In this document: one piece after another, positions 4,702-24,016 of the stretch | Position numbering within the stretch: the stretch's first letter is position 1 | Layout: each line of letters opens with the position of its first letter | Origin: a virus | IMG/VR virus record: IMGVR_UViG_3300020184_000017 | Coordinates: 1-33,416 of that record | Reading direction: 5' to 3' (one strand) | DNA length: 33,416 nucleotides | Translations under genes and position numbers: made by a program | The notes under the pieces: model-generated | Database searches by the model: none | What the model was told of the DNA's origin: nothing | The model's input: the letters and a program-made list of their open reading frames with translations, nothing else

Positions 4702-4917
4702 TTACTTAGCTACAACAAACTCATTTAATTCTGACGCAACATTAATAATGTCTTGAGCAGTAAAGTTTTGAGCTGGTAAAGGTTTTTTATCATCTGGATG
4801 GTTATCGTTGTGATGATAAGTAGCGTTAATCTTTCTTTCAAGATTATCATATAATATGGACTGAGCCATACTGAGTAGGTCGGCACGAATCTCGTACCCT
4901 GATTTTCCGTTTGACAT
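4702..4917 (-). CDS. Hypothetical conserved-looking phage protein, 71 aa
   Basis: A strong AGGAGGAATT site precedes the ATG. The N-terminus (MSNGKSGYEIRADLLSMA) and the C-terminal block (TAQDIINVASELNEFVVAK) read like a small helical family that I recall from marine T4-like phages, without a known function. It is the last gene of the minus-strand curli-like unit. A 68-bp leader with a 7-bp hairpin (4950-4956 with 4963-4969) and a -10-like TATAAT (complement of 4972-4977) suggest it may also be expressed on its own. Confidence 0.65.
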   Translation of the reverse strand: MSNGKSGYEIRADLLSMAQSILYDNLERKINATYHHNDNHPDDKKPLPAQNFTAQDIINVASELNEFVVAK

Positions 4918-4949
4918 AATTCCTCCTGTGTGTATGTGTGTTTATGTCT

Positions 4950-4977
4950 TGTATCTTTTATTAGATACATTATTATA
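4950..4977 (-). promoter_or_regulatory. Possible promoter and leader hairpin for the 71-aa gene
   Basis: On the minus strand a TATAAT (4977-4972) is followed by a hairpin, TGTATCT/AGATACA with a 6-nt loop (4950-4956 with 4963-4969), and then the ribosome binding site. No good -35 box is seen, so promoter function is uncertain. Confidence 0.3.
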
Positions 4978-4985
4978 TATACGAG

Positions 4986-5657
4986 CTATCTTTTTTCGCA
5001 TTGCCTCTCGGCTTTATGAATCAATCTAAAATTATTTGCTACAATAACTCCTGTTGATATACCTGCACCTAATTTCCAACCATACCAAAAATGTTCGTCC
5101 GTATCTATAACAAATTTTAATCCACCAATAATACCTAACTTTAAACCGACCATTTCATGAACTTGTGGAATTTCAGGTAATAAAGGATTTGCTTCATATA
5201 AACAATCATATTTCATACCTTTATAAGTTGAATATACATCAAGTATCTGAGTGGTCCAAAAGAATACATCAATCCATTTTCTTTCATTCTCAGTCCAACC
5301 AAAATCTGGAGAGGACATATCTAGGTTAAGATTTACATCATTTACTGAGAATTGTGGAGCACGTTCCTGGAATTTTGGATTGTGTTGTAAATCATGAAAA
5401 GTAGGAACAAATTTAGGACCATAAGGTAATTGGATAATTGCACCGTTAGACATTATTCTCGATTTGCCTACAATTGTTCGGCGAACATAATATTCGTTAT
5501 ATGGAGCAAAATGCCCTTGTTGAAATTGTGTTAAATGTCTTTGATTAACGTTGGGTATGTAATGTGTTTCTATTTTAGGCACATACGCACTTACTGGAAT
5601 ACTCAGAAAAAGTAATCCGATAATAAATTTATTTAGTAGTCGCGATAAAGACTCCAT
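4986..5657 (-). CDS. Secreted/membrane protein, 223 aa, end of curli-like block
   Basis: A signal peptide is evident: a basic N-terminus, a hydrophobic core FIIGLLFLSIPVSAYV, and possible cleavage after SAY or SA. The middle part is polar. The C-terminal half contains hydrophobic helices with the pattern FFWTTQILDVYSTYKGMKY, EANPLLPEIPQ and a Leu/Gly-rich segment. This pattern reappears in the 131-aa protein at 16847-17242 (a DUF5658-like arrangement, by eye). The start overlaps the cyclase gene by 29 bp, so it is expressed with it. The function is unknown; the location suggests an envelope role with the cyclase and curli-like genes. Confidence 0.65.
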   Translation of the reverse strand: MESLSRLLNKFIIGLLFLSIPVSAYVPKIETHYIPNVNQRHLTQFQQGHFAPYNEYYVRRTIVGKSRIMSNGAIIQLPYGPKFVPTFHDLQHNPKFQERAPQFSVNDVNLNLDMSSPDFGWTENERKWIDVFFWTTQILDVYSTYKGMKYDCLYEANPLLPEIPQVHEMVGLKLGIIGGLKFVIDTDEHFWYGWKLGAGISTGVIVANNFRLIHKAERQCEKR

Positions 5658-7668
5658 TCCAATCCCTTGGTAGCGTTTGTGTTTTCATGTATTCACAACG
5701 CTCTATCCACATCTTGTAATAACCAGCCATTTGGCCTTCAAAACATTCCATCAAGTCATTACAGATTTTAATGGCCTTATCAAAATTTTGTTTTCGATAA
5801 TTCAGATGCATTGCTTCATGCATCTCTGTGGGTTTAATATATTTATTCTTGTCCAAATCAAGAACTGTGTAAATTTCAATACCTACTGTCTTGCCTTTTA
5901 CGGCCAAATCATCTACCTTTAAAAAGAAAAAGTCATCACGACAATGTTTTACTGTATCTCCACCTACTAATAAAAGGCAACCATATTCTTTACATTTAGA
6001 CTCAATTCGTGCAGCAGTTGAAACGCTGTCGCCAAGTACATCATAACTGTGTCGTTCTGTAGAACCCATTTCACCAAGATAACCAAGGCCAGTGTTAATC
6101 CCAGCCCCCATACCAATTGGTGGTCTTCCTTCTGATACAATTTTTTCATTAAATTTTTCTACACTCCTTAACATATTGAGTCCAGTTTGCACTGCGGTTT
6201 TAGGATGTTCTGGGTCATCAATAGGCGCATTGTGAATATGCATTGAAGCATCGCCTATATATTTAATAATCATTCCATCAGCATTAAGGACAGGCTCTGT
6301 GATTGAATCCATATATCCATTCATCAATTTTGTCAAGCCTTGTACATCGTCTCCAAAACTTTCACCTAAAGGTGTAAAGCCTCTTAAATCAGAAAAACAA
6401 ATACTTATTTCTTTTTTCATACCTTCTTTAATGAGGGCAGGATTTTCTTGTAAGAGACGAACAACTGTTGGGGAAGCATACCCAGAAAATTGCTTTTGTA
6501 TTTGACGTTTTTCCAAAAACGTGATATAATACTTGTTGAAACTTGATTGGGCAAAAACTACTAAGGAAGCTAATGAACTCAAAGTTGCATCAACGAAGAT
6601 TAAAGAATCATTCCAAAGATACAATGATATTCCATAGGAGGAGAAAAGAAGAAATAAACTCTTTATCACCGCAAGAGTTGTGGGTAAGATATAGACCGCT
6701 CCAAGGATACCTAGACTCAATAACACCAGAAGACCAAGCTCGGCTATTGGCTGCCAGTCGGGAATCTGTATTTCGACTCCTGAAAGAACGGTCTGAATTA
6801 GATGGGCTTGAACTTCATGGGGATACACTGCACCCGTTGGGGTTGCGACTGGATTAGCATATCCTTCAGCTGTTACGCCAAATAAAAGAACTTTTCCAGA
6901 TGGCAATGGGTCTAATATACTAATTTGTTCAAATTCGTTCCAGAATGCAATTGGTATTTCAGCAAAACTATTTGTTGTAATTGGGTCTTGGCGACCCATT
7001 CGTATCCACTCGACTCCATTGGAGCCGACTTTCATCTGATAACTTGGTTCTCCTGTAAACACTCGTAATGTATCGAGGGCGAGAGATGGATAGGGATTCC
7101 CGGCTGCTTTAACAACGAGGGGCGCTCTTCGCACGACTCCGGTTGGGGCGTCAGGAATAGCAACAGTGGCACCAACACCAAAAGCCCAAGAAGAAAGAGA
7201 TTCCACAGGGTACAATAATCCTGGAAACGTGTATAACCAATTCTCATTTTGTTCTCCAAAAGTTGCAACACCTACAAAGGTGCCAACTCCATCTGATGTT
7301 TGTTGAGTGGGAGCAGAAGATAATACAACAGCTTTATTTGCCATTGCCTCTGCTAGTTGATTATCCTCTCCGAACCTATCAGATTCGGAATAAATCATAT
7401 TTAGTACATATAAAGAATCAGCAGGGCCAGAATTAATGTAATCAGCAACACTGCCCCTTGGCCAAGGATATTGACCGTTTTTTGCAATTGCGTTTTCGTC
7501 AATGTTGACGAGGACGATATCCTCCGACGCAATTTTTTCCTTTTTTGAATGGAGATAGTCATAATAAGAATACTCTATACTTTGAATAAAATTTGGATTT
7601 GATATACTTAAGGCAGCAAATCCAGTGATGGTTATTAATACCGTCCACCACTTTGTTAACCATTTCAT
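5629..7668 (-). CDS. CHASE2-domain membrane nucleotide cyclase (class III)
   Basis: The 679-aa protein has an N-terminal membrane helix (about 9-24), an extracytoplasmic CHASE2 sensor (about 30-300, with IVLVNIDENAIAKNGQYPWP at 51-70), three membrane helices (about 308-375) and a cytoplasmic class III adenylate/guanylate cyclase domain (about 418-603). Metal ligands Asp427 (CFSDLRGF) and Asp473 (YIGDA) are present. Lys469 and Asp543 match adenylate-type substrate recognition. Arg554 is present, but the usual transition-state Asn is Ser550 (GDSVSTAAR), so activity may be altered. It would make cAMP (or cGMP) from ATP (or GTP) in response to a periplasmic signal. The C-terminal 75 residues form a helical extension. 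Confidence 0.9.
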   Translation of the reverse strand: MKWLTKWWTVLITITGFAALSISNPNFIQSIEYSYYDYLHSKKEKIASEDIVLVNIDENAIAKNGQYPWPRGSVADYINSGPADSLYVLNMIYSESDRFGEDNQLAEAMANKAVVLSSAPTQQTSDGVGTFVGVATFGEQNENWLYTFPGLLYPVESLSSWAFGVGATVAIPDAPTGVVRRAPLVVKAAGNPYPSLALDTLRVFTGEPSYQMKVGSNGVEWIRMGRQDPITTNSFAEIPIAFWNEFEQISILDPLPSGKVLLFGVTAEGYANPVATPTGAVYPHEVQAHLIQTVLSGVEIQIPDWQPIAELGLLVLLSLGILGAVYILPTTLAVIKSLFLLFSSYGISLYLWNDSLIFVDATLSSLASLVVFAQSSFNKYYITFLEKRQIQKQFSGYASPTVVRLLQENPALIKEGMKKEISICFSDLRGFTPLGESFGDDVQGLTKLMNGYMDSITEPVLNADGMIIKYIGDASMHIHNAPIDDPEHPKTAVQTGLNMLRSVEKFNEKIVSEGRPPIGMGAGINTGLGYLGEMGSTERHSYDVLGDSVSTAARIESKCKEYGCLLLVGGDTVKHCRDDFFFLKVDDLAVKGKTVGIEIYTVLDLDKNKYIKPTEMHEAMHLNYRKQNFDKAIKICNDLMECFEGQMAGYYKMWIERCEYMKTQTLPRDWNGVFIATTK

Positions 7669-7669
7669 T

Positions 7670-7984
7670 TTAACTAAACTTCTTTTGGATATACTTTACT
7701 GCTGCATATAATGTTAAACCATATACTGCGAAAATTGTTAATGGTACTGCCATATTTAAAATAGTCCAAATATCTAAGAACAATAAATCCGTTGTGAAAT
7801 CTATAATTGCTTCAGCATCGCCCATCGGCTCAACTTGGAATGTTTCTGTATTATAATACATATCAGCATCAGAAAGCATTTGGTTAAATCCTTCTTCGGT
7901 TAAACAAATCATATCTTGAGGACAATCTTCGTCACCCGGATATAATGTTCCTACTGGATTTCCAAAATCATCTAACTCTTGCAT
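7670..7984 (-). CDS. C-tail membrane protein, 104 aa
   Basis: I start it at ATG 7984, which overlaps the upstream curlin stop codon (TAATG); a longer reading from 8029 lacks support. The N-terminal 75 residues are acidic with two cysteines (GDEDCPQDMICLTEEG). A hydrophobic segment follows at about 76-96 (MAVPLTIFAVYGLTLYAAV) with a basic tail, so the acidic part probably faces the periplasm. It lies between a curlin-repeat gene and the cyclase gene. The family is not recognised. Confidence 0.65.
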   Translation of the reverse strand: MQELDDFGNPVGTLYPGDEDCPQDMICLTEEGFNQMLSDADMYYNTETFQVEPMGDAEAIIDFTTDLLFLDIWTILNMAVPLTIFAVYGLTLYAAVKYIQKKFS

Positions 7985-8721
7985 TATTCTTGCAACACAT
8001 TTACTGAGCAACCACCAACCGTATAACAATCCACTGATAAGTTATATGTTTGATTGGTTGTGCTATTTTGTCTAATAAGCGCGTCCGTTCCGTAAATACC
8101 ATCTAAAGTAATATTTGCTGTGTGGTTTGCGTTAGCACCTTTTTGTCTAAATGTTAAAACATTGTCTGAATTATAAAGTGTAATGTTTGCTTCTTTTGCA
8201 CCTGAAGATTGTTGTCTTCCATCTATCCAATTATCAGACCCAGCAACATGTAAGTTAAAATCATGTCCGTCAGTTGCACCACTTTGATTTGTTTGATGCC
8301 ATTCAACAAAGTTATCATTACCATATAAATCTATTTCCATATAATGACCACCGCCTTCGGCACCATCATAGTTCCAGCCTTGTGTGGTGTTATCAAAAGC
8401 AACACCTTGACCTAATTTAAATTCATTACCTGTTCCACTGATTTCATCAAATACTATTGTGTTATCAAGACCTGCGGTATTATACTGAACAACTAATAAA
8501 TCTAATGTTGACGCATTGATATACGAATATTGGTCCAACATTTTAATTTCATTATCAGCACCGTATTGCTGAATCTCTAAATTTAAATTATCACCAGTTT
8601 GTTCAATGGTTATTACATTATCTGCATAAGCTTTACCAGCTGCCAAAATAAAATACATTCCCAACAATAACCAGGAAAATCCTAATAACCATTTATCTAA
8701 TTTTCTATCAAATTCGTCCAT
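7984..8721 (-). CDS. Curlin-repeat protein B (CsgA/CsgB-like)
   Basis: The 245-aa protein has a charged N-terminus, a hydrophobic segment ending GKAYADN (signal peptide or anchor), then repeats of about 22-28 residues with alternating hydrophobic residues and conserved Asn, Gln and Gly. Examples are VITIEQTGDNLNLEIQQYG, IDLYGNDNFVEWHQ, NITLYNSDNVLTFRQKG and NITLDGIYGTDALIRQN. This is the beta-arcade pattern of curlin amyloid subunits. A C-x5-C pair sits near the C-terminus. It would be exported through CsgG. The start overlaps the ACP stop (TAATG). Confidence 0.8.
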   Translation of the reverse strand: MDEFDRKLDKWLLGFSWLLLGMYFILAAGKAYADNVITIEQTGDNLNLEIQQYGADNEIKMLDQYSYINASTLDLLVVQYNTAGLDNTIVFDEISGTGNEFKLGQGVAFDNTTQGWNYDGAEGGGHYMEIDLYGNDNFVEWHQTNQSGATDGHDFNLHVAGSDNWIDGRQQSSGAKEANITLYNSDNVLTFRQKGANANHTANITLDGIYGTDALIRQNSTTNQTYNLSVDCYTVGGCSVNVLQE

Positions 8722-8939
8722 TAAGCATTCGCCTCAACATAGTCTTTAATCTGTTTTACTGTAAATAATTCTTCAGCTTCATCATCTGGAATTTGGAATC
8801 CAAATTCTTCTTCCAAATCCATAATAATTTCTACTACGCTTAATGAATCTGCGTTTAAATCATCTACAATATGTTTTTCGTCTGTGACTTCCAATAAGGA
8901 ACAATCACATCTATTTGCAATTATTTTTTCTATTTCCAT
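8721..8939 (-). CDS. Acyl carrier protein
   Basis: This 72-aa acidic protein has the ACP fold signature: DDLNADSLSVVEIIMDLEEE with the phosphopantetheine-accepting Ser32 in the DSL motif, then FGFQIPDDEAEELFTVKQI. It is of full length for the family. ACPs carry acyl groups for fatty acid, lipid or polyketide synthesis or for protein acylation. Its place between a FecR-domain gene and a curlin gene, in a phage late operon, is unusual. No phosphopantetheinyl transferase or acyltransferase is seen in the window, so host enzymes would have to load it. Confidence 0.93.
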   Translation of the reverse strand: MEIEKIIANRCDCSLLEVTDEKHIVDDLNADSLSVVEIIMDLEEEFGFQIPDDEAEELFTVKQIKDYVEANA

Positions 8940-8947
8940 AATTTTAT

Positions 8948-10108
8948 TTATCCACCTTGTTTTATAACTATAACTGAATCGTCTCCACCATTTAAATTAA
9001 TAATACCAGAATAACCTTCTACCTCTGTGTCAATTCTTACAGAAGCATCTATAGCAAATACTAATTTAATTGTGTCTTGCACTTGTCTGTAAAATACAAT
9101 TTTTCCATCTTGTTCATAAATGTTATATTGAGAATCAGCATTAAGTCCAAATGTGGCTCCCTTTAATTCTGCTCCCAATGAAGTTCCAGCAATTGCTCTA
9201 TCATCAAGCGCAGCAGTGGTTTTTACGAGCTCTTCCACAATATCCAAAACATCAGTTAAGAAATCAACATCAAGAAAATCAATATCCAGTTCAGTAAATT
9301 CCAATGCATCATCTTCAAGATAATCTTCTTCCAATTCTGTAAACTCTAAAAAGTCAATGTCAAGCAATCCTTGGTCTTCATTTGCATCATCTGCCATTTC
9401 TTCCTCAATAGCTTCTTTCACTTCTGGTGGCGGTGATACGATAAACATATTATCAATCATCGCTGGTGTGATGTTCTGTATACTGACTTTAGGAGTAGGT
9501 GGAGAATCCAATGTGGAAACCATTGTCGCTGCATAAGCTTCCTCTAAAACGATAGTACCACCCAGATTTGATACCTCTATGGTACCTGATGGATTACCAT
9601 ATTGGTCTGGTAAAAGAATGACAAGCGATCTTCCGAGCTCGTCAATAGTTGTTGTAAAATCTGTCCCACGAACTGATATAGTAGCTGTAGGTGTTTGTAT
9701 GTCTATATTATTTTTATTGACCATGCCCAATCGGCCAGATGCGAACCTTGCAGTTCCCATTGCCATTCTCATAGCCATTTTTGATTTGCTTGGATCTGGG
9801 TCATAGTATACACGGTCAATGTATACCTTTGTATTTTCTGTAAGGCTAAGTTCAGCCTCGTCTAGGAACTCAATTAACATTCGACCATTTTCTGTTTCGG
9901 CCGTGTCATTCATTACAATATCTGGAACTTGTGTATCTGAAACCTCTAACGTTGCTCCAGCTTCACGAGTGATAGAAGCACTTCCCTTGTGCTCAATGAT
10001 ATTCCCGATGGGCTCTGCATTAGAACCCATCGAAAATAGTAGAATACTAGCTGTCGTTAGAGCTGTCTTTTTGATTAATCTGAATTGTTGCATTTTCAGA
10101 ATCAACAT
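8948..10108 (-). CDS. FecR-domain secreted protein
   Basis: The 386-aa protein has a signal peptide (ALTTASILLFSMGSNAEP) followed by a FecR domain at about residues 33-160, with NGRMLIEFLDEAELSLTENT and TPTATISVRGTDF as markers. An acidic low-complexity linker (about 235-290) contains repeated LEFTEL and DIDFL units. A C-terminal beta-rich part ends GGDDSVIVIKQGG. The start at 10108 overlaps the upstream curlin gene by 62 bp; ATG 10093 gives a more ordinary signal peptide and is an equal choice. It is not next to a sigma factor or TonB receptor, so it is not a standard FecR regulator. A surface or fibre-associated role is plausible. Confidence 0.8.
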   Translation of the reverse strand: MLILKMQQFRLIKKTALTTASILLFSMGSNAEPIGNIIEHKGSASITREAGATLEVSDTQVPDIVMNDTAETENGRMLIEFLDEAELSLTENTKVYIDRVYYDPDPSKSKMAMRMAMGTARFASGRLGMVNKNNIDIQTPTATISVRGTDFTTTIDELGRSLVILLPDQYGNPSGTIEVSNLGGTIVLEEAYAATMVSTLDSPPTPKVSIQNITPAMIDNMFIVSPPPEVKEAIEEEMADDANEDQGLLDIDFLEFTELEEDYLEDDALEFTELDIDFLDVDFLTDVLDIVEELVKTTAALDDRAIAGTSLGAELKGATFGLNADSQYNIYEQDGKIVFYRQVQDTIKLVFAIDASVRIDTEVEGYSGIINLNGGDDSVIVIKQGG

Positions 10109-10775
10109 CTAGTGTTATGATACCATTACAGGTTGAGACACCCGTAGGACATGTACCACTTAACTGATTAATGTCAATATCAGCTGATGAACCATCAAGT
10201 GTTAAATTGATTTCTTGTTCACCACCATCTTTTTGCATAGTATTAATGTCATTTGAACCTCCAGTAATATCGAAGTTCCAAATAGCATCATCTACGTCTA
10301 TATCGACATCAAAGACATTACTATCTCCAATTATAGTTAGATCGAAATCCAACCTTTCCGCGCTTGCGTTATAACCTTGGTCAAAATCCATTATGTTAGA
10401 ATCACCAGTAATATCTACATCCATAGTAGTACTATCTGAAGAGCCAACATATCCAATGTCCCAATCCCACTCGTTAGAATCACCTGTAAACAATAAGTTA
10501 TAGGTGCTACTATCAGCAATTAATGGGCCGAATAATAGATTCTGATTACCGATTTGGTCTATATTAAAAGTCAAAGTTGAACCAGTAATAACCATAGCAC
10601 TTGAAGATGAACTAAAATCGTCAGCTCCAATTTTATTACCATAACCATATTGGTCAACATATAATGTTAAAGTATCACCAACCTGCTCGATGTTAATTTC
10701 GTTATCATCGGTAGCTTGAGCAAATGCGAAACCAGAGATTAATACTAAACTTAGGCCTAATAGTTTTTTAATCAT
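10047..10775 (-). CDS. Curlin-repeat protein A (CsgA/CsgB-like)
   Basis: The 242-aa protein has a clear signal peptide (MIKKLLGLSLVLISGFAFA, cleavage near AFA-QA). It then has about seven or eight curlin-like repeats with Asn, Gln and Gly turns: INIEQVGDTLTLYVDQYG, LTFNIDQIGNQNLLFG, several ITGDSN-type turns and ATIQINQKD at the end. Asp and Ser are enriched. A C-x6-C pair lies near the C-terminus (GTCPTGVSTCNG). It follows csgG directly, with an 8-bp overlap, as expected for a CsgG substrate. It would assemble into extracellular amyloid-type fibres if functional. Confidence 0.82.
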   Translation of the reverse strand: MIKKLLGLSLVLISGFAFAQATDDNEINIEQVGDTLTLYVDQYGYGNKIGADDFSSSSSAMVITGSTLTFNIDQIGNQNLLFGPLIADSSTYNLLFTGDSNEWDWDIGYVGSSDSTTMDVDITGDSNIMDFDQGYNASAERLDFDLTIIGDSNVFDVDIDVDDAIWNFDITGGSNDINTMQKDGGEQEINLTLDGSSADIDINQLSGTCPTGVSTCNGIITLDVDSENATIQINQKDSSNDS

Positions 10776-11745
10776 CTTTCGTTTCCTCTATTTTTTTATT
10801 ATTGATTTTCCAGAAGCCACGTCTGTCTCCTTGGTAAACCATTTCCAGCACGGCAGCCTCGATAGCTGTTCGCACTGCGTATGTCACTGATTCATTATTT
10901 CCCACACCGTCTTCATATTCAATCAACTGTGTTCCTTGTTCAATAAATCTAAATATATCCCCTCCGGAACCATAACTTAAAATTGTCTTTTTTGTTTGGA
11001 CATTTAATAGTACTTCGCCTGTTAAAACACTTACCGCTCTCAGCGATACTGTCACTTGGTCTTGTCTATATTGACGTGAAAATCCAATCCCTAAAGTTCT
11101 GGCCCCTCGGCCACCAGTTTTTAAATTACTATCATATCCAATAATACCACCTTCAATTATCATTCCTGCAAATAAAAGTGGTCCTAATTTTTGTGGCTCT
11201 TCTCCAAGAGCTTTGGCAGCTTCATCTCTGCCACTTCTAATAATTTGTCTTTCTCTTACAAGAGCATCAATCCCTTGTCGTTCAACTACTCTAAACCAGG
11301 TTCCATTACCTGCAGTTTTAAGAGCGTCAATTAATAATTCTGTTCCACCTTGAGTCACAGCTGTGGAAAAACTTTGTCCTGTGACTGAATCTTTACGTTG
11401 CCCTGTTTTATCTAAAAATTGATATACAGCAACGACCGGTCTTGTTTCAGCTGGTGGTAAATTTAATAAATCAATATATGATGGAAGATCTACAACTTCT
11501 GGTTGTTCAACACAAATTTGCTTTGTCTCGATATATTTACGAGTACCGGTATACAGTTGTTTTCCAACACTTAAAGCATCATCATTTATAATACCATCAT
11601 TATCAAAATCGGTATTAAATCCTTGTGCAAATCTTCCTTCGCCATATTCACAATAAGCTGGACCTTCAGACCATTGCGGAACACTGGCACAGCCAGTCAT
11701 AAATGCAAGTGCTATAATACTAGCCGTTCGGGTCAGAGTTTCCAT
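10768..11745 (-). CDS. csgG: CsgG, curli secretion pore lipoprotein
   Basis: CsgG family outer-membrane export channel. A lipoprotein signal with lipobox MTGC (Cys19) is followed by about 70 extra residues that contain an EF-hand-like DFDNDGIINDD loop. The CsgG core spans about 96-320, with AVYQFLDKTGQ, SFSTAV, VVERQGIDALVRERQIIR, EGGIIGYDSN and KTILSY matching the family. I chose ATG 11745 with GGAAG upstream over a TTG at 11754. Compared with E. coli CsgG as I remember it, Phe56 of the constriction is kept, but the Tyr51 and Asn55 positions differ and one residue is inserted. It is preceded by csgF and followed by a curlin gene. Confidence 0.93.
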   Translation of the reverse strand: METLTRTASIIALAFMTGCASVPQWSEGPAYCEYGEGRFAQGFNTDFDNDGIINDDALSVGKQLYTGTRKYIETKQICVEQPEVVDLPSYIDLLNLPPAETRPVVAVYQFLDKTGQRKDSVTGQSFSTAVTQGGTELLIDALKTAGNGTWFRVVERQGIDALVRERQIIRSGRDEAAKALGEEPQKLGPLLFAGMIIEGGIIGYDSNLKTGGRGARTLGIGFSRQYRQDQVTVSLRAVSVLTGEVLLNVQTKKTILSYGSGGDIFRFIEQGTQLIEYEDGVGNNESVTYAVRTAIEAAVLEMVYQGDRRGFWKINNKKIEETKDD

Positions 11746-12214
11746 CGCTTCCAAATGTTCCTGTTCCTATAGGAATTTCAATTACTGTTGTTGTTCCATC
11801 TTCGCCTACAATTGTCATTTTGATATATTCAGTACCATCTTCATTTGTGAGTACTTCATATGTCACTGTAGAACCTTCAAGGACAAATGAACCAAACCTT
11901 ACGGGATTATCATTTGAAAACATATTGTCAACTAGTTGTTTTGCTAATTGAGCATATATACGCGATTCTAAATTACGAATAAATTTTGCGAGGGTTGTAT
12001 TATCTGCTTCTCTCTCTGCAGCTCTTCGTGCAGCTTCTAAAGCATCTTTGATTTGTTCTTTTCTACTGTGTTCCTGGTTTTCAATGGTCAGATAGTGAGC
12101 ACCTGTACCCACACCACTGAAAGAAGGATTTTTAAACTTGTGTACAATAGGTTCTGCCTGAACGGTACCTATTGCAAATAATAAAATTAAACTACTTTTT
12201 AGTTGGTTTTTCAT
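11720..12214 (-). CDS. csgF: CsgF, curli assembly factor
   Basis: Starting at ATG 12214 gives a standard signal peptide (MKNQLKSSLILLFAIGTVQA) and a mature protein beginning EPIVHKFKNPSFSGVG. This matches the CsgF N-terminal segment that inserts into the CsgG pore (FxNPxFGG). A helical middle (about 45-100) and a C-terminal beta part (VTYEVLTNEDGTEYIKMTIV) follow. An upstream ATG at 12235 would add 7 residues. The 164 aa are slightly longer than E. coli CsgF. It overlaps csgG by 26 bp, so the two are translated together. Confidence 0.88.
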   Translation of the reverse strand: MKNQLKSSLILLFAIGTVQAEPIVHKFKNPSFSGVGTGAHYLTIENQEHSRKEQIKDALEAARRAAEREADNTTLAKFIRNLESRIYAQLAKQLVDNMFSNDNPVRFGSFVLEGSTVTYEVLTNEDGTEYIKMTIVGEDGTTTVIEIPIGTGTFGSDGNSDPNG

Positions 12215-12461
12215 CTTTATTTTTAAGCCTTTCATTTTCTTTATATTTTAATACCACATCTACTTTTTGCTGTAAGCGAATAAGATCTTGGTCTAGCATT
12301 CTCATTTGGTCAATTACCTTTATTAATTGAAAATGCATTTTCTCAATTGCTGGGTCTATATGTTCATTTATAAAGTTATAAACAAAATACACGAAATAGC
12401 CCAATCCGACTACCATTATGGTCGGAAAGCCATAATCTGATACTAATTGTGCTATATCCAT
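12192..12461 (-). CDS. Holin-like/YvrJ-like small membrane protein 2, 89 aa
   Basis: ATG 12461 directly follows the preceding stop. An N-terminal membrane helix (MDIAQLVSDYGFPTIMVVGL through VYFVYNFI) is followed by an amphipathic coiled-coil region (about 40-75) and a very charged C-terminus (KENERLKNKDEKPTKK). It resembles the protein at 12681-12977 in layout (xxQLxSDxGxP, a membrane helix, then a helical tail), so the two are likely paralogues. The layout fits small phage holin-like or YvrJ-type proteins. A holin or envelope-adaptor role is inference. Confidence 0.6.
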   Translation of the reverse strand: MDIAQLVSDYGFPTIMVVGLGYFVYFVYNFINEHIDPAIEKMHFQLIKVIDQMRMLDQDLIRLQQKVDVVLKYKENERLKNKDEKPTKK

Positions 12462-12462
12462 C

Positions 12463-12681
12463 TTAAAAATCAAACTTTAATTGTTCATTATTATCAAAAT
12501 CAACACGTTTGTCTACTCTACTTAACATCGGTTGGCCTAATTCAGTTTCACTTGCCACAAAATAATCTCCTACATTCCAATTAAATTTATCCAATGTTAG
12601 GTCTGCATATCGCGATTCTGCGTCAAAAATTAGAATATCGCCACAGGGAGTCAGCTCCCATTTATAGCCACAAAATAACAT
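12463..12681 (-). CDS. Hypothetical protein, 72 aa
   Basis: It starts in a TAATG overlap with the preceding gene. The product is short, soluble and beta-like (MLFCGYKWELTPCGDILIFD) with two cysteines. It does not look like CsgE, which is longer and carries a signal peptide. The family and function are unknown. Its position between two paralogous membrane proteins at the head of the curli-like unit may be relevant. Confidence 0.6.
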   Translation of the reverse strand: MLFCGYKWELTPCGDILIFDAESRYADLTLDKFNWNVGDYFVASETELGQPMLSRVDKRVDFDNNEQLKFDF

Positions 12682-12977
12682 TAATCTCTCCTTACGTCGA
12701 GTTTTCCGTCCTCAATAAAATTCTCTGCCCGAGCTACTCTCTCAATATCAGGATTTAATCCCAGCGCGCTACTCACAAGCAGATCGATTTTGACCATCTC
12801 ATTTGACATAGTCCGAGCTCTGTTTTCGAGGCTTTCACAAAACATTGTTAATGTATTAATGCTATCAACGATTCCTTCAAAAATTTGCTTAATAATAATG
12901 AATATGAAGAATCCCATTGTCAACGCCCCGGCGATGGGTAAACCCACATCCGAAATCAGCTGAAATATTTCTTCCAT
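12681..12977 (-). CDS. Holin-like/YvrJ-like small membrane protein 1, 98 aa
   Basis: First gene after the late promoter at 13016-13023, with AGGA 7 nt before the ATG. A membrane helix spans about residues 10-31 (DVGLPIAGALTMGFFIFIII). The rest is a helical, partly amphipathic region with a charged C-terminus (LDVRRD). It aligns by eye with the 89-aa protein two genes downstream. The function is unknown; this topology is common among small phage inner-membrane proteins, including holins. Confidence 0.65.
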   Translation of the reverse strand: MEEIFQLISDVGLPIAGALTMGFFIFIIIKQIFEGIVDSINTLTMFCESLENRARTMSNEMVKIDLLVSSALGLNPDIERVARAENFIEDGKLDVRRD

Positions 12978-13015: not shown

Positions 13016-13023
13016 TATTTATA
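13016..13023 (-). promoter_or_regulatory. T4-type late promoter of the curli-like operon
   Basis: On the minus strand the octamer TATAAATA (13023-13016) stands about 38 bp upstream of the first ATG at 12977. It is the exact T4 late consensus and is not accompanied by a sigma70 -35 box. Since the genes down to about 4986 overlap or nearly touch, this one promoter could drive the whole block. Confidence 0.75.
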
Positions 13024-15562: not shown

Positions 15563-15829
15563 ATGGCATTTAAACCCGTAGACACACTAGAAGAGCTACA
15601 AAAAGAATGGCGTAATCCTTACATACAATGGTATGCAGCTGGAATGCCTTCATTTGTATCTCGTAATACTGAACCTTGGAAACAAGTCACATTAAAGTTT
15701 CGGTCAAAAGAAGACCGAGCATATTTTGGCGAAGCAATGAATTATAAGTTGACTGACAAAACAAATGTGGTTTGGTACCCAAGAAAAGAATCAGAAAAAA
15801 ATCAGATGAGTAGATATGTCGAAGAATAA
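15563..15829 (+). CDS. Small conserved-type phage protein, 88 aa
   Basis: The product contains PWKQVTLKFRSKEDRAYFGE and TDKTNVVWYPRKE. This pattern (substrate-like WK..TL.F....DR..F followed by .LT.KT..VWYP) is one I recall next to, or fused with, glycosyltransferase and ParB-like proteins in phages. No catalytic residues are evident. It overlaps the glycosyltransferase gene by 14 bp, so the two are probably translated together and may act together. The sequence ATCTAAATA just upstream is weakly late-promoter-like. Confidence 0.65.
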   Translation: MAFKPVDTLEELQKEWRNPYIQWYAAGMPSFVSRNTEPWKQVTLKFRSKEDRAYFGEAMNYKLTDKTNVVWYPRKESEKNQMSRYVEE

Positions 15830-16763
15830 TCGTTATCCAATTTATATCATATCAAAAGGTCGCTGGGAAAGTCGATACACTCCTAAGGCTTTAGAGAAAA
15901 TGGGCGTCCCATATTTCATCGCAGTTGAGCCACAAGAATATGATAACTATAAAGAGGTCATTGGACCACTTGGAACTGTATTAAAACTTCCATTCAGTAA
16001 TCATGGAAAAGGTTCTGGTCCAGCTCGGAACTGGTGCTGGGAACATTCTCAGGCAAATGGTTTCAAGCGTCATTGGTTAATGGACGATAATATATCTGAA
16101 TTTTGGCGCGTTCATAATAATAAAAGATATCGTGTGGAAAAAGGTTCTGCTATTTTTAGAGCGACCGAGGATTTTGTAGATAGATACGAAAACGTAGCTT
16201 TAGCTGGTTTACAATATAAATTCTTTGTGGTTGATGATACTGATTACCCACCTTATGTACTGAATACCAGAATCATGTCATGTTTTTTAATTGACAACGA
16301 TTGCCCAGAAAAATGGAGAGGAAAATATAACGAAGATGTAGATCTGAGTATACGAGTTTTAAAACGAGGGCTCTGTACAATGTTAATGTATTCCTTCTTA
16401 TGTGGTAAATTAAGAACCGGAACTGTAAAGGGTGGAAATACATCTGAAATTTATAACGATTATAAGGAAGATGCTTCTCAAACTAAATCACAGATGTTAA
16501 AAGAAATGCATCCAGATTGTGTCACAGTTGGAGAACGTTATGGCCGAGTTCACCATTTTGTTGATTTAAATGCAATTAAAAGAGCTGATGGTTTACCAGC
16601 AAGACAAAATGCTCCCATATTAAAATCTGATGTGGATATTGTAAATAAATCAAATAATTATGGAATGAAACTCATGCGAGAGTTTGGTACTGAAAAACAA
16701 TATGAAGATGTCGCATTTAGTGCCGATGTGTTTCCACAAGGTCGTAAATCGGTACATTCATAG
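15816..16763 (+). CDS. Glycosyltransferase resembling the TET-associated (TAGT) family
   Basis: The 315-aa product opens with YPIYIISKGRWESRYTPKAL, then has PYFIAVEPQEYDNY, LPFSNHGKGSGPARNWCWEH, the metal-binding WLMDDNI (Asp90-Asp91-Asn92), RYENVALAGLQY, WRGKYNEDVDLSIRVL and KGGNTS. This order matches phage glycosyltransferases of the TET/JBP-associated (GREB1-like) group, which are predicted to glycosylate hydroxymethylated bases in DNA. It therefore hints that the phage DNA carries modified bases. No TET/JBP enzyme or base-modifying synthase is in the window. The family call is from memory of motifs; a generic GT-A glycosyltransferase is the alternative. Confidence 0.75.
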   Translation: MSKNNRYPIYIISKGRWESRYTPKALEKMGVPYFIAVEPQEYDNYKEVIGPLGTVLKLPFSNHGKGSGPARNWCWEHSQANGFKRHWLMDDNISEFWRVHNNKRYRVEKGSAIFRATEDFVDRYENVALAGLQYKFFVVDDTDYPPYVLNTRIMSCFLIDNDCPEKWRGKYNEDVDLSIRVLKRGLCTMLMYSFLCGKLRTGTVKGGNTSEIYNDYKEDASQTKSQMLKEMHPDCVTVGERYGRVHHFVDLNAIKRADGLPARQNAPILKSDVDIVNKSNNYGMKLMREFGTEKQYEDVAFSADVFPQGRKSVHS

Positions 16764-18059: not shown

Positions 18060-18134
18060 GGCCCGTTCGTCTAGTGGTTAGGACACATGGTTTTCATCCA
18101 TGCAACAGGAGTTCGATTCTCCTACGGGCTACCA
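18060..18134 (+). tRNA. tRNA-Glu (anticodon UUC), CCA encoded
   Basis: A full cloverleaf can be drawn: acceptor GGCCCGT (18060-18066) with ACGGGCT (18124-18130, one G-U pair), D-arm with GTC/GAC, anticodon arm CATGG/CCATG around loop TTTTCAT (anticodon TTC, reading GAA/GAG), T-arm AGGAG/CTCCT with loop TTCGATT, discriminator A at 18131 and encoded CCA at 18132-18134. It directly abuts the structured RNA and probably shares its transcript, so RNase P cleavage would define the 3' end of that RNA. Confidence 0.95.
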
Positions 18135-22441: not shown

Positions 22442-24016
22442 TTATCCGCCTAGCGTAATTTCTGCAAACTGAACGACCTCATTAAATTGGTCCTCGTCTG
22501 CCATTAATTTTGATGCCATTTCCTTGGCATCCTTTGGCTTTAATTGCTTAAAGAAATCAGTTAAAAGTTGAGCCTTTTGTTTATCAACCTTTACTCTTTT
22601 ACCATTATCTAATTTTGCTTGACCAGCTCTAGCTCTCAATTTATTACCTGAAAACTTTACAGATGACTCTTCAAGCTCTTCAGCAGACTCTGCAAATCCT
22701 AAGATACCGGCCTTGTCAAACATAGCGGCCGCACTAATCTTTTTTACAGGATTTACCAGTTGGTCTCCTTTTGACCATGCGTAGAGTGATTTAACATTAC
22801 TGAATACATCAGCAAGTTTATTTTGCCACCACTCTTCTGGGTCAACACCACTCTTCAGATATTCACTAATCTCTTCTGAGGCGTAACAAATGAAATGTAA
22901 TTGTTTCATCATCATTGGAATTTCTTCTTGGGGACTCTCCAAGAGCTCTTCCTCTGTACTGATTTTATCTAACATTTCTTTGAATGTGACTTTAATTTTT
23001 CTACCACCAGACACACCGATTTCAACAGCTGAAGGTGATAGTTTATCTTGTTTTACTTTTGGAGCTTCATCAGGTTGAGCATCAAGGGTATCAGCTGAGT
23101 CTGTTTCAGCTTCTTCTTCAACTTTTTCATCTTCGCCCATACAGTTTGAAGCATATAAACCTTCGAAAGTAGACTTTGAACAGCCATACTTTTCTTTGAT
23201 TTTTTCATACATTTCGTGTTTGGAACAACCAGAAGCATGAAGTTTCATCATATCCTCAACACATGCTGATTCATCATAACCTTCTTCTTGTTCTGGAGCA
23301 TCATTAGGGTCTTCATCGCCCATGATTTTATCGTATTCGTCGTCCCATTTATCTTCAGGTTTCTTGTTTTTAAAACCGAGGATTTCAGTAATTGACATTT
23401 GCTCAATATCAACGCTTTCAGATCTTGCAGCATTTCTTTCGGCTTCTTTTGCTTTTTGAATCGCATCTTTAGCCTTTTGTAATCTTTCCTGAGCTTTTTT
23501 CAAGCGTTCTTTAGCTTTTACTTTCTTTTCTATTTTCTCTGCTTGTCTTTCAGCTCGGCCTGCACGACCAGAAGTTGTAAGTCTGTCTATGGTTTGTCGT
23601 TTAATACCTCTACCAATTGCTTTTGCAGCACGTCCTATAACCTCATCAAGTTCTTCTTCTGTAAGATCTTCCAGGTCATATTTGGATAATTCCTCTGCGA
23701 GGGTATTAATTTCTTCCTCGGTCCAATCATAGTCATCAGTAAGTTCTTCATCATCGACAACGATTGTATTACCTCTTTTAGGTAGAGTTTGAGAAACTTT
23801 CTTTTTATAAGCTTGGTCGTAAGCTTTTTTATCATCTCCCTTGGCATTATCTGCCGGACGTTTCTTGGGTGTTAAACCTTCAATGTCGCCTGTAAATTGA
23901 GAATCCAAAGCAACAGGATGATCGATTCGCTCAATCTCATGTTGGTCTTTAAATCTCTTTTCTTCGGGCGCCTTTGGTTGGCCTACCTCGGAGAGAATGT
24001 CTTTAAATTGTTTCAT
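22442..24016 (-). CDS. Large prohead core-like protein, 524 aa
   Basis: It occupies the place of T4 genes 67 and 68 (small core proteins) between gp20 and gp21, but is far larger. The protein is highly charged. A Glu/Asp-rich region (about 85-130) and a Lys/Ala/Glu coiled coil (about 150-200, ERLKKAQERLQKAKDAIQKA) come first. A cysteine-bearing region follows (SACVEDMMKLHASGCSKHEM, repeated in style as KEKYGCSKSTFEGLYASNC). A mixed C-terminal domain has WWQNKLADVFSNVKSLYAWS. A head core or internal protein processed by gp21 is the best guess; an ejected internal protein is the alternative. No enzyme domain is recognised. Confidence 0.75.
   Translation of the reverse strand: MKQFKDILSEVGQPKAPEEKRFKDQHEIERIDHPVALDSQFTGDIEGLTPKKRPADNAKGDDKKAYDQAYKKKVSQTLPKRGNTIVVDDEELTDDYDWTEEEINTLAEELSKYDLEDLTEEELDEVIGRAAKAIGRGIKRQTIDRLTTSGRAGRAERQAEKIEKKVKAKERLKKAQERLQKAKDAIQKAKEAERNAARSESVDIEQMSITEILGFKNKKPEDKWDDEYDKIMGDEDPNDAPEQEEGYDESACVEDMMKLHASGCSKHEMYEKIKEKYGCSKSTFEGLYASNCMGEDEKVEEEAETDSADTLDAQPDEAPKVKQDKLSPSAVEIGVSGGRKIKVTFKEMLDKISTEEELLESPQEEIPMMMKQLHFICYASEEISEYLKSGVDPEEWWQNKLADVFSNVKSLYAWSKGDQLVNPVKKISAAAMFDKAGILGFAESAEELEESSVKFSGNKLRARAGQAKLDNGKRVKVDKQKAQLLTDFFKQLKPKDAKEMASKLMADEDQFNEVVQFAEITLGG

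What the first reader, a model, noticed from the sequence alone, without database searches (positions are those of the whole stretch)
4702..12977. Complete curli-type secretion block inside a T4-like phage late operon
CsgF, CsgG and two curlin-repeat proteins stand in one overlapping gene string with two holin-like proteins, a FecR-domain protein, an ACP, a CHASE2 cyclase and secreted proteins of unknown family. In bacteria, csgG and csgF serve curli amyloid export; here the block has T4-type late control and phage-style packing, so it looks like an integrated phage module and not a chance capture. Possible roles are remodelling of the outer membrane before lysis, aggregating host cells or debris to catch new hosts, blocking superinfecting phages, or a virion-associated fibre. 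I recall CsgG-like ORFs annotated in some marine phages, but the full set with ACP and cyclase is not something I know as a described system.
Basis: partly seen in the sequence, partly recalled or inferred. Interest (0 to 1): 0.93.

Follow-up and report, generated by a model that had tools for sequence, protein, structure and literature searches.

The report
Curli-fibre export operon in marine phage
A marine T4-like phage carries, as a late-expressed operon, genes to push curli-type (amyloid-like) fibres through the outer membrane of the infected bacterium; the operon type was already described in 2020-2022, but comparison of about 150 relatives suggests that one fibre subunit is repeatedly swapped between near-identical phages, as expected of a surface-exposed adhesin.

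Summary
Window 12977-4702 (minus strand) encodes two small membrane proteins, CsgF, CsgG, a curlin-like protein, a FecR-domain protein, an ACP, a second curlin-like protein, and a CHASE2-cyclase, with a T4-type late promoter in front, on a T4-like phage fragment. It is not undescribed: Pelagibacter phage HTVC008M and methylophage Melnitz carry it without the ACP, and PMC7029224, PMC9004378 and PMC9599517 describe it. I found nothing experimental.

What I add: (1) the ACP is a clean single-gene insertion, seen in two phage lineages. (2) The second curlin is replaced between otherwise near-identical blocks, with conserved ends and a variable middle, and carries a PA14 domain in HTVC008M and two other phages. 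(3) The phage FecR protein ends in a curlin-type strand (45/47); its bacterial relatives include RTX adhesins. (4) Bacterial operons with csgF-csgG-curlin-FecR(-cyclase) exist, contrary to the 2022 paper. (5) The small membrane pair is found only with csgG (72/72).

Best reading: a late, phage-encoded type VIII secretion system that dresses the infected cell with an adhesive fibre whose exchangeable subunit sets what it binds. Export, adhesion and benefit are inferred.

The parts
13016..13023 (-). T4-type late promoter motif TATAAATA
   Evidence: Exact match 46 nt upstream of the first ATG; motif upstream of this gene in 45/85 viral loci vs 1.3% background
12681..12977 (-). tmA, 98 aa, small inner-membrane protein (N-terminal hydrophobic segment, charged C-terminal part); phage-specific partner of the block
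   Evidence: phrog_18771 9.7e-24; in named phages only in HTVC008M and Melnitz; 72/72 tm-seeded IMG/VR loci carry csgG
12463..12681 (-). 72-aa ORF of unknown family, optional
   Evidence: Homologue in 8 of the sampled viral loci; no Pfam hit
12192..12473 (-). tmB, 93 aa, paralogue of tmA
   Evidence: phrog_18771 5.2e-24; alignment
11720..12235 (-). CsgF, 171 aa, secreted; N-terminal F-x-NP-x-F-x-G segment
   Evidence: PF10614 1.7e-14; motif in 66/68 distinct phage CsgF
10768..11754 (-). CsgG, outer-membrane secretion pore lipoprotein (lipobox-like MTGC; start codon uncertain)
   Evidence: PF03783 5.5e-55; profile vs E. coli CsgG structures 9.9e-65
10047..10775 (-). First curlin-like fibre subunit, 242 aa, signal peptide, repeats of 22-26 aa
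   Evidence: PF07012 0.0015, sub-cutoff; NCBIfam CsgA 9.1e-5, sub-cutoff; AlphaFold2 all-beta stacked strands, pLDDT 82
8948..10108 (-). FecR-domain protein, 386 aa, with signal sequence and C-terminal curlin-type strand ending in invariant Gln384
   Evidence: PF04773 3.8e-9; tail in 45/47 phage FecR vs 6/831 background ORFs
8721..8939 (-). Acyl carrier protein, 72 aa, with ADSL phosphopantetheine site; optional insertion
   Evidence: PF00550 3.4e-10; clean indel relative to L008, and L040 relative to L039
7984..8721 (-). Second curlin-like subunit, 245 aa; variable middle, conserved ends, C-x-x-x-GGC...Q tail
   Evidence: PF07012 0.015, sub-cutoff; replacement between close relatives
7670..8029 (-). 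119-aa ORF with one C-terminal hydrophobic segment, optional; start uncertain
   Evidence: Homologue in 13 viral loci; no family
5629..7668 (-). CHASE2 periplasmic sensor fused to class III nucleotide cyclase; catalytic Asp, Lys, Asp, Arg kept, transition-state Asn replaced by Ser
   Evidence: PF05226 9e-29, PF00211 1e-15; phrog_35576 2.8e-149; residues
4986..5657 (-). Secreted or membrane protein, 223 aa, DUF5658-like (sub-cutoff), block-associated and fast-evolving
   Evidence: DUF5658 0.0033; homologue in 30 viral loci; omega 0.24-0.64
4702..4917 (-). 71-aa ORF, last of the string, unknown
   Evidence: Homologue in 10 viral loci; no Pfam hit

Best explanation
The block is a phage-encoded, late-expressed type VIII (curli-type) secretion system that builds an adhesive surface fibre on the infected cell. 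CsgG forms the outer-membrane pore and CsgF docks in it through its conserved N-terminal segment. The conserved first curlin is the structural subunit. The second curlin, with fixed ends and an exchangeable middle that is PA14-bearing in some phages, is the exposed tip or minor subunit that decides what the fibre binds. The FecR protein is not an iron regulator: its adhesin-type domain plus a curlin-type C-terminal strand make it a periplasmic or outer-membrane adaptor that holds or senses the fibre, and it reports to the CHASE2-cyclase in the inner membrane. The small membrane pair is the phage-specific inner-membrane part. The likeliest benefit is keeping the infected cell attached to neighbours or particles so that released virions meet hosts in dilute water. 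Shown by sequence: gene identities, linkage, late promoter, purifying selection, replacement of the second curlin, FecR tail. Inferred: export, fibre formation, adhesion, the FecR-CHASE2 contact, and the benefit.
For: CsgG aligns with E. coli CsgG over its whole length. The CsgF segment that fits E. coli CsgF (FRNPNFGG) is kept in 66/68 phage CsgF, which argues against the view in PMC9004378 that CsgF may no longer pair with CsgG. Both curlins have signal sequences, curlin repeats in window or orthologues and curlin-type ends. The second curlin is replaced between blocks whose other genes are 91-100% identical, with replacement-level synonymous divergence, in at least four groups where the cyclase on the far side is also conserved. 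Ends better kept than the middle. PA14 in HTVC008M, L071 and L073. FecR tail 45/47 vs 6/831; FecR model matches a cell-surface anchoring domain (5ix9, TM 0.75 by target, E 0.012) and its alphaproteobacterial relatives sit in RTX adhesins with LapA-type retention hits. Late promoter. Module linkage 72/72 from the tm side. Purifying selection.
Against: No export, fibre or aggregation has been shown. PMC9004378 saw no clumping of Melnitz-infected cells in cytograms or TEM. Curlin hits are below Pfam's cut-off in this window, and the AlphaFold model of the first curlin has no significant PDB match (best E 0.11). No CsgE was recognised. The window's cyclase lacks the transition-state Asn, so cAMP output is doubtful here. 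The FecR model is of moderate confidence (pLDDT 72), and its best PDB match is the PupR anti-sigma signalling domain (5e-5), which would also fit a signalling role. Some replacements could be assembly chimeras.
Confidence: 0.5

Rival explanations
1. Surface shield: the exported fibre coats the infected cell and blocks adsorption of competing phages (superinfection exclusion); second-curlin variation reflects an arms race over receptors.
For: Proposed in PMC9599517. Same export machinery and same variable exposed subunit. Host-surface modification genes are common in these phages (PMC7029224).
Against: Late expression is late for exclusion. PA14, a carbohydrate-binding type of domain in some variants, points to binding and not shielding.
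Confidence: 0.2
2. Lysis device: CsgG, with or without CsgF and the small holin-like membrane pair, acts as a regulated pore that depolarises the envelope and times lysis (view of PMC9004378).
For: Late promoter; small one-segment membrane proteins linked to csgG in 72/72 loci; no holin was recognised among the window proteins scanned.
Against: It does not explain two curlins, the FecR tail, PA14 or the replacement of the second curlin. CsgG lies in the outer membrane and cannot by itself depolarise the inner one. CsgF keeps its CsgG-docking segment.
Confidence: 0.12
3. Uptake pore: CsgG without the CsgE cap admits large nutrients or cofactors for late phage synthesis.
For: No CsgE recognised; proposed in PMC7029224 and PMC9599517.
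Against: Needs neither CsgF, nor conserved curlins under purifying selection, nor a swapped second curlin.
Confidence: 0.06
4. Virion-associated fibre.
For: The block shares late control with structural genes.
Against: The curlins, CsgF and FecR carry N-terminal signal-like sequences, so they would leave the cytoplasm where virions assemble; no structural gene lies in the block; in HTVC008M and Melnitz the block lies beside other genes than in the window.
Confidence: 0.02
5. Bacterial contamination or chance capture.
For: Bacterial csgFG operons are common in Alphaproteobacteria.
Against: Block on the same contig as T4 structural genes, isolates HTVC008M and Melnitz, hundreds of viral contigs, about half of those tested with late promoters.
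Confidence: 0.01

Closest known systems
Pelagiphage T8SS/curli module (PMC9599517; PMC7029224) as in Pelagibacter phage HTVC008M
   Same: Order small protein(s)-csgF-csgG-curlin-FecR-curlin-cyclase; CsgG 52% identical over residues 96-321
   Different: The window adds the ACP and the 72-, 119-, 223- and 71-aa genes, has an Asn-less cyclase, and lies in a phage whose head protein and terminase are nearest Sinorhizobium phages phiM12/phiN3 (66% and 58%). HTVC008M's second curlin has a PA14 domain
Methylophage Melnitz curli operon (PMC9004378)
   Same: Same gene order, same Asn-less cyclase type
   Different: No ACP; PMC9004378 says Melnitz lacks csgA/csgB, whereas its record annotates two curlin-repeat proteins
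Bacterial curli (csgBAC/csgDEFG) of E. coli
   Same: CsgG homologous over full length, CsgF docking segment, curlin repeats
   Different: No CsgD, CsgE or CsgC recognised; FecR, cyclase and membrane pair present
Chromosomal csgF-csgG-curlin-FecR-CHASE2-cyclase operon of Hyphomonas sp. TMED17 (L090)
   Same: Same five genes, same order, overlapping; cyclase keeps the same C-terminal region
   Different: No membrane pair, no ACP, one long (504 aa) curlin, FecR without the curlin-type tail, cyclase with intact Asn

Membership tests
Type VIII (curli) secretion system | CsgG pore protein | tested here: met
   PF03783 5.5e-55; PDB CsgG 9.9e-65
Type VIII (curli) secretion system | CsgF with CsgG-docking N-terminal segment | tested here: met
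   PF10614 1.7e-14; motif in 66/68 phage sequences
Type VIII (curli) secretion system | Secreted curlin-repeat subunit(s) | tested here: inconclusive
   Sub-cutoff in the window, above cut-off in orthologues of the second curlin; repeat period 22-26 in the first
Type VIII (curli) secretion system | CsgE periplasmic cap (present in E. coli, not in all lineages) | tested here: not met
   No Pfam CsgE hit among the block proteins scanned; PMC9599517 also reports its absence. CsgE is described as not essential for the curli phenotype in PMC7029224, so this is not taken as excluding membership
Type VIII (curli) secretion system | Amyloid fibre outside the cell | not testable with these tools
   Needs expression and Congo red/ThT/EM
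Pelagiphage T8SS module of PMC9599517 | Order HK?-csgF-csgG-csgA/B-FecR-csgA/B-cyclase | tested here: met
   The 'HK' position is held by 93-98-aa membrane proteins
Histidine kinase (name used for the first genes in PMC9599517) | HisKA/HATPase domains | tested here: not met
   No such Pfam hit in tmA, tmB or their orthologues; about 95 aa. That these are the paper's 'HK' is inferred from position
FecR transmembrane iron-signalling regulator | N-terminal anti-sigma part, partner FecI sigma factor and FecA receptor | tested here: not met
   N-terminal signal sequence directly before the FecR domain, no sigma factor or receptor beside it; relatives in RTX adhesins
Class III nucleotide cyclase | Two metal Asp, Lys, transition-state Asn and Arg | tested here: inconclusive
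   Asp427, Lys469, Asp473, Arg554 kept; Asn replaced by Ser550 in the window and 16 others, kept in 26
Pycsar anti-phage cyclase | PycC cyclase with PycTM or other effector | tested here: not met
   Cyclase domain similarity 5.8e-15 only; no effector model hit in the five other block proteins scanned
Holin | Holin family profile or lysis function | tested here: inconclusive
   Hydrophobic segment present, no Pfam or PHROG holin hit

The most novel reading that the evidence does not exclude
Marine T4-like phages carry an adhesive fibre for the infected host cell that is built like a tail fibre in evolutionary terms: conserved export and shaft genes plus a recombinationally exchanged tip curlin with different binding modules. 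A curlin-tailed FecR adaptor couples fibre state to a CHASE2-cyclase, so that the phage both changes what the cell sticks to and reads out that attachment late in infection.
Probability: 0.25. Interest if true: 0.8.

Novelty: new variant of a known kind. Interest (0 to 1): 0.55.

Why it matters
Phage-encoded curli have been known since 2020 without a known function. The replacement of the second curlin, its PA14 variants and the curlin-type tail of the FecR protein make one function (adhesion with a changeable target) more likely than pore or lysis functions and give direct tests. If true, marine phages would reprogramme the stickiness of free-living ocean bacteria, which bears on encounter rates, particle formation and gene exchange. 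The bacterial operons L090 and L107 also correct the published statement that FecR and cyclase do not occur in bacterial curli operons.

Tried and rejected
Foldseek of the first curlin against PDB: no significant match. Profile of the phage FecR against PDB sequences: nothing. ACP as a core part of the module: rejected, because it occurs in the window and in 3 of the 80 csgG-seeded viral loci (L004, the same population as the window, and L040/L041) and in none of 80 tm-seeded loci, and as a clean indel. Pycsar defence: only generic cyclase similarity. FecR as an inheritance typical of Hyphomonadaceae: the L090-type FecR is in 1 of 105 family genomes although CsgG is in 21, so the donor lineage, and even the direction of transfer, stays open. 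The CsgG tree puts phages, L090 and L107 on one side of a supported branch, but L090 and L107 have long branches and the tree is unrooted. dN/dS for tmA/tmB mixes the two paralogues and was not used. Three genome searches failed for want of a genome handle. The bacterial host of this phage was not determined.
Full report
WHAT IS THERE. The window is a 33,416-base virus record of a T4-like phage: major head protein, scaffold, prohead protease, portal, sheath and terminase have strong PHROG hits. The nearest named relatives of head protein and terminase are Sinorhizobium phages phiM12/phiN3 (66% and 58% identity), ahead of Melnitz (64% and 50%). So this is not simply another pelagimyophage. On the minus strand, 12977 to 4702, lies one string of overlapping genes: tmA (98 aa), a 72-aa ORF, tmB (93 aa), CsgF, CsgG, curlin-like 1, FecR-domain protein, ACP, curlin-like 2, a 119-aa ORF, CHASE2-cyclase, a secreted 223-aa protein and a 71-aa ORF.

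LATE CONTROL. An exact TATAAATA precedes the first gene (13016-13023). The only other copies in the window precede scaffold, protease and sheath genes on the same strand. Chance would give about 3.6 copies somewhere in the window, so position is the evidence, and the comparison is decisive: 45 of 85 viral loci have the exact motif just upstream of tmA against 1.3% of background windows.

CONSERVATION. A scan of IMG/VR with CsgG found 492 stretches encoding relatives; the 80 best were annotated with profiles built here. The order tmA-tmB-csgF-csgG-curlin-FecR-curlin-cyclase recurs nearly throughout. Starting instead from the small membrane proteins, all 72 testable loci carry csgG and all 55 with enough downstream sequence carry FecR; five of the 80 contigs were already in the first set. 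In 50,697 phage records tmA occurs only in HTVC008M and the Melnitz isolates. Every gene with readable rates is under purifying selection (omega mostly 0.05-0.4).

WHAT IS ALREADY KNOWN. PMC7029224 first reported the operon (2020) and proposed 'sibling capture'. PMC9004378 described it in Melnitz and proposed a lysis role. PMC9599517 described the complete module including curlins, FecR, cyclase and a 'histidine kinase' before csgF, in podo- and myoviruses. Searches of the held library found no later experimental work.

THE ACP. It has a phosphopantetheine site (NADSL) and is a clean single-gene insertion: window DNA is about 92-94% identical to L008 in the FecR gene on one side and from the cyclase on the other, and the ACP's length is missing in L008 exactly between FecR and the second curlin. 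In L040 against L039 the same slot holds or lacks an ACP while the second curlin stays 99% identical. It is an optional gene; its role is unknown and I do not build on it.

THE SECOND CURLIN IS REPLACED. Among 47 distinct pairs of blocks with CsgG 93-99.85% identical, median amino-acid identity is 96% for curlin 1, 96% for FecR and 82% for curlin 2, and the median proportion of synonymous differences is 0.16, 0.11 and 0.34. The pairs are not independent, but several separate groups show full replacement: L070 against L071/L073 (other genes 97-100%, curlin 2 48%), L014/L015/L024 (96-99% against 64-81%), L082/L083 (94-96% against 75%), all with a conserved cyclase on the far side; likewise the window against L008 (91-96% against 63%). 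L201/L203, L209/L218 and L190/L192 show it too, but there the cyclase side was not fetched. Silent sites are strongly divergent as well, so this is exchange of the gene and not only fast adaptive change. The ends are better kept than the middle in most of these pairs, and 99 of 102 distinct second curlins end in a Cys-Cys...Gln tail. In HTVC008M, L071 and L073 the protein carries a PA14 domain above Pfam's cut-off, a domain type known (my knowledge) for carbohydrate binding; PMC9599517 does not mention it. Kept ends with an exchanged middle are what tail-fibre tips and adhesins show.

THE FECR PROTEIN. It has a signal sequence and a FecR domain, then a C-terminal strand of curlin type ending in Gln: 45 of 47 distinct phage proteins, against 6 of 831 other ORFs; Gln384 is invariant in 39 aligned sequences. 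Both curlins end alike. The bacterial FecR proteins of L090 and L107 do not. The model (pLDDT 72) resembles anti-sigma signalling domains (PupR, 5e-5) and, less significantly, a cell-surface anchoring domain (5ix9, E 0.012, TM 0.75 by target). Alphaproteobacterial relatives found by sequence are parts of large proteins; of five scanned, four have RTX repeats and three have weak LapA retention-module similarity below NCBIfam's cut-off. I read it as a fibre- or envelope-bound adaptor rather than an iron regulator; the contact with CHASE2 is inferred from gene order only.

THE CYCLASE. All 43 viral sequences keep the metal Asp residues, Lys and Arg; 26 keep the transition-state Asn and 17, including the window and Melnitz, have Ser. 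Activity of the second type is uncertain, though it too is under purifying selection.

CSGF AND CSGG. PMC9004378 suggested that phage CsgF may no longer pair with CsgG. The E. coli docking segment FRNPNFGG aligns with phage FKNPSFSG (weak as a database hit, E 0.96), and the motif is kept in 66 of 68 phage sequences. Close CsgF relatives with the same long middle part exist in bacteria (L090, L107), so the long middle part is not a phage degeneration.

BACTERIAL PRECEDENT. PMC9599517 states that FecR and cyclase are not within bacterial curli operons. L090 (Hyphomonas sp. TMED17, 705-kb contig, metabolic genes on both sides) has csgF-csgG-curlin-FecR-CHASE2-cyclase in this order; L107 (a gammaproteobacterial contig) has csgF-csgG-curlin-curlin-FecR. 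Neither has the membrane pair. This supports capture of a pre-formed bacterial operon, with the pair and the FecR tail added in phages, but the type is rare (1 of 105 genomes of the family) and the direction of transfer is not proven.

VERDICT. A real, conserved, already described kind of module, here in a further T4-like lineage with an extra ACP. The comparison adds evidence for an exported adhesive fibre with an exchangeable subunit. Nothing here shows export or adhesion directly.

Noticed in passing
L005, L013-L016, L022, L024, L027, L029, L039-L041, L046, L084 (upstream of tmA): TATAAATA starts exactly 13 nt before the tmA ATG (15 nt in L044, L058-L061). With T4 late spacing the transcript would start at or next to the ATG, i.e. 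leaderless, whereas other loci including the window have 33-57 nt.
   Followed up: partly
window 5629-7668: Two forms of the cyclase domain occur across the modules: a canonical one and an Asn-to-Ser one shared by the window and Melnitz, whose cyclase halves look far more alike than their CHASE2 halves, suggesting a domain swap.
   Followed up: partly
window 4986-5657: Fast-evolving secreted DUF5658-like protein that follows the cyclase in many viral blocks; in L049, L050 and L054 a relative lies elsewhere within the block.
   Followed up: partly
window 15816-16763: Glycosyltransferase of the TAGT / HMC-glucosyltransferase type, suggesting hypermodified phage DNA.
   Followed up: no
window 22442-24016: A 524-aa gene of unknown function sits between portal and prohead protease genes, with only a weak helicase-like PHROG hit.
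   Followed up: no
window 18060-18134: tRNA-Glu (TTC) among small plus-strand genes.
   Followed up: no
L087, L088: Two different phage-type curli blocks on 121-kb and 142-kb contigs of one Sphingobacteriales MAG; probably phage genomes binned with it.
   Followed up: no
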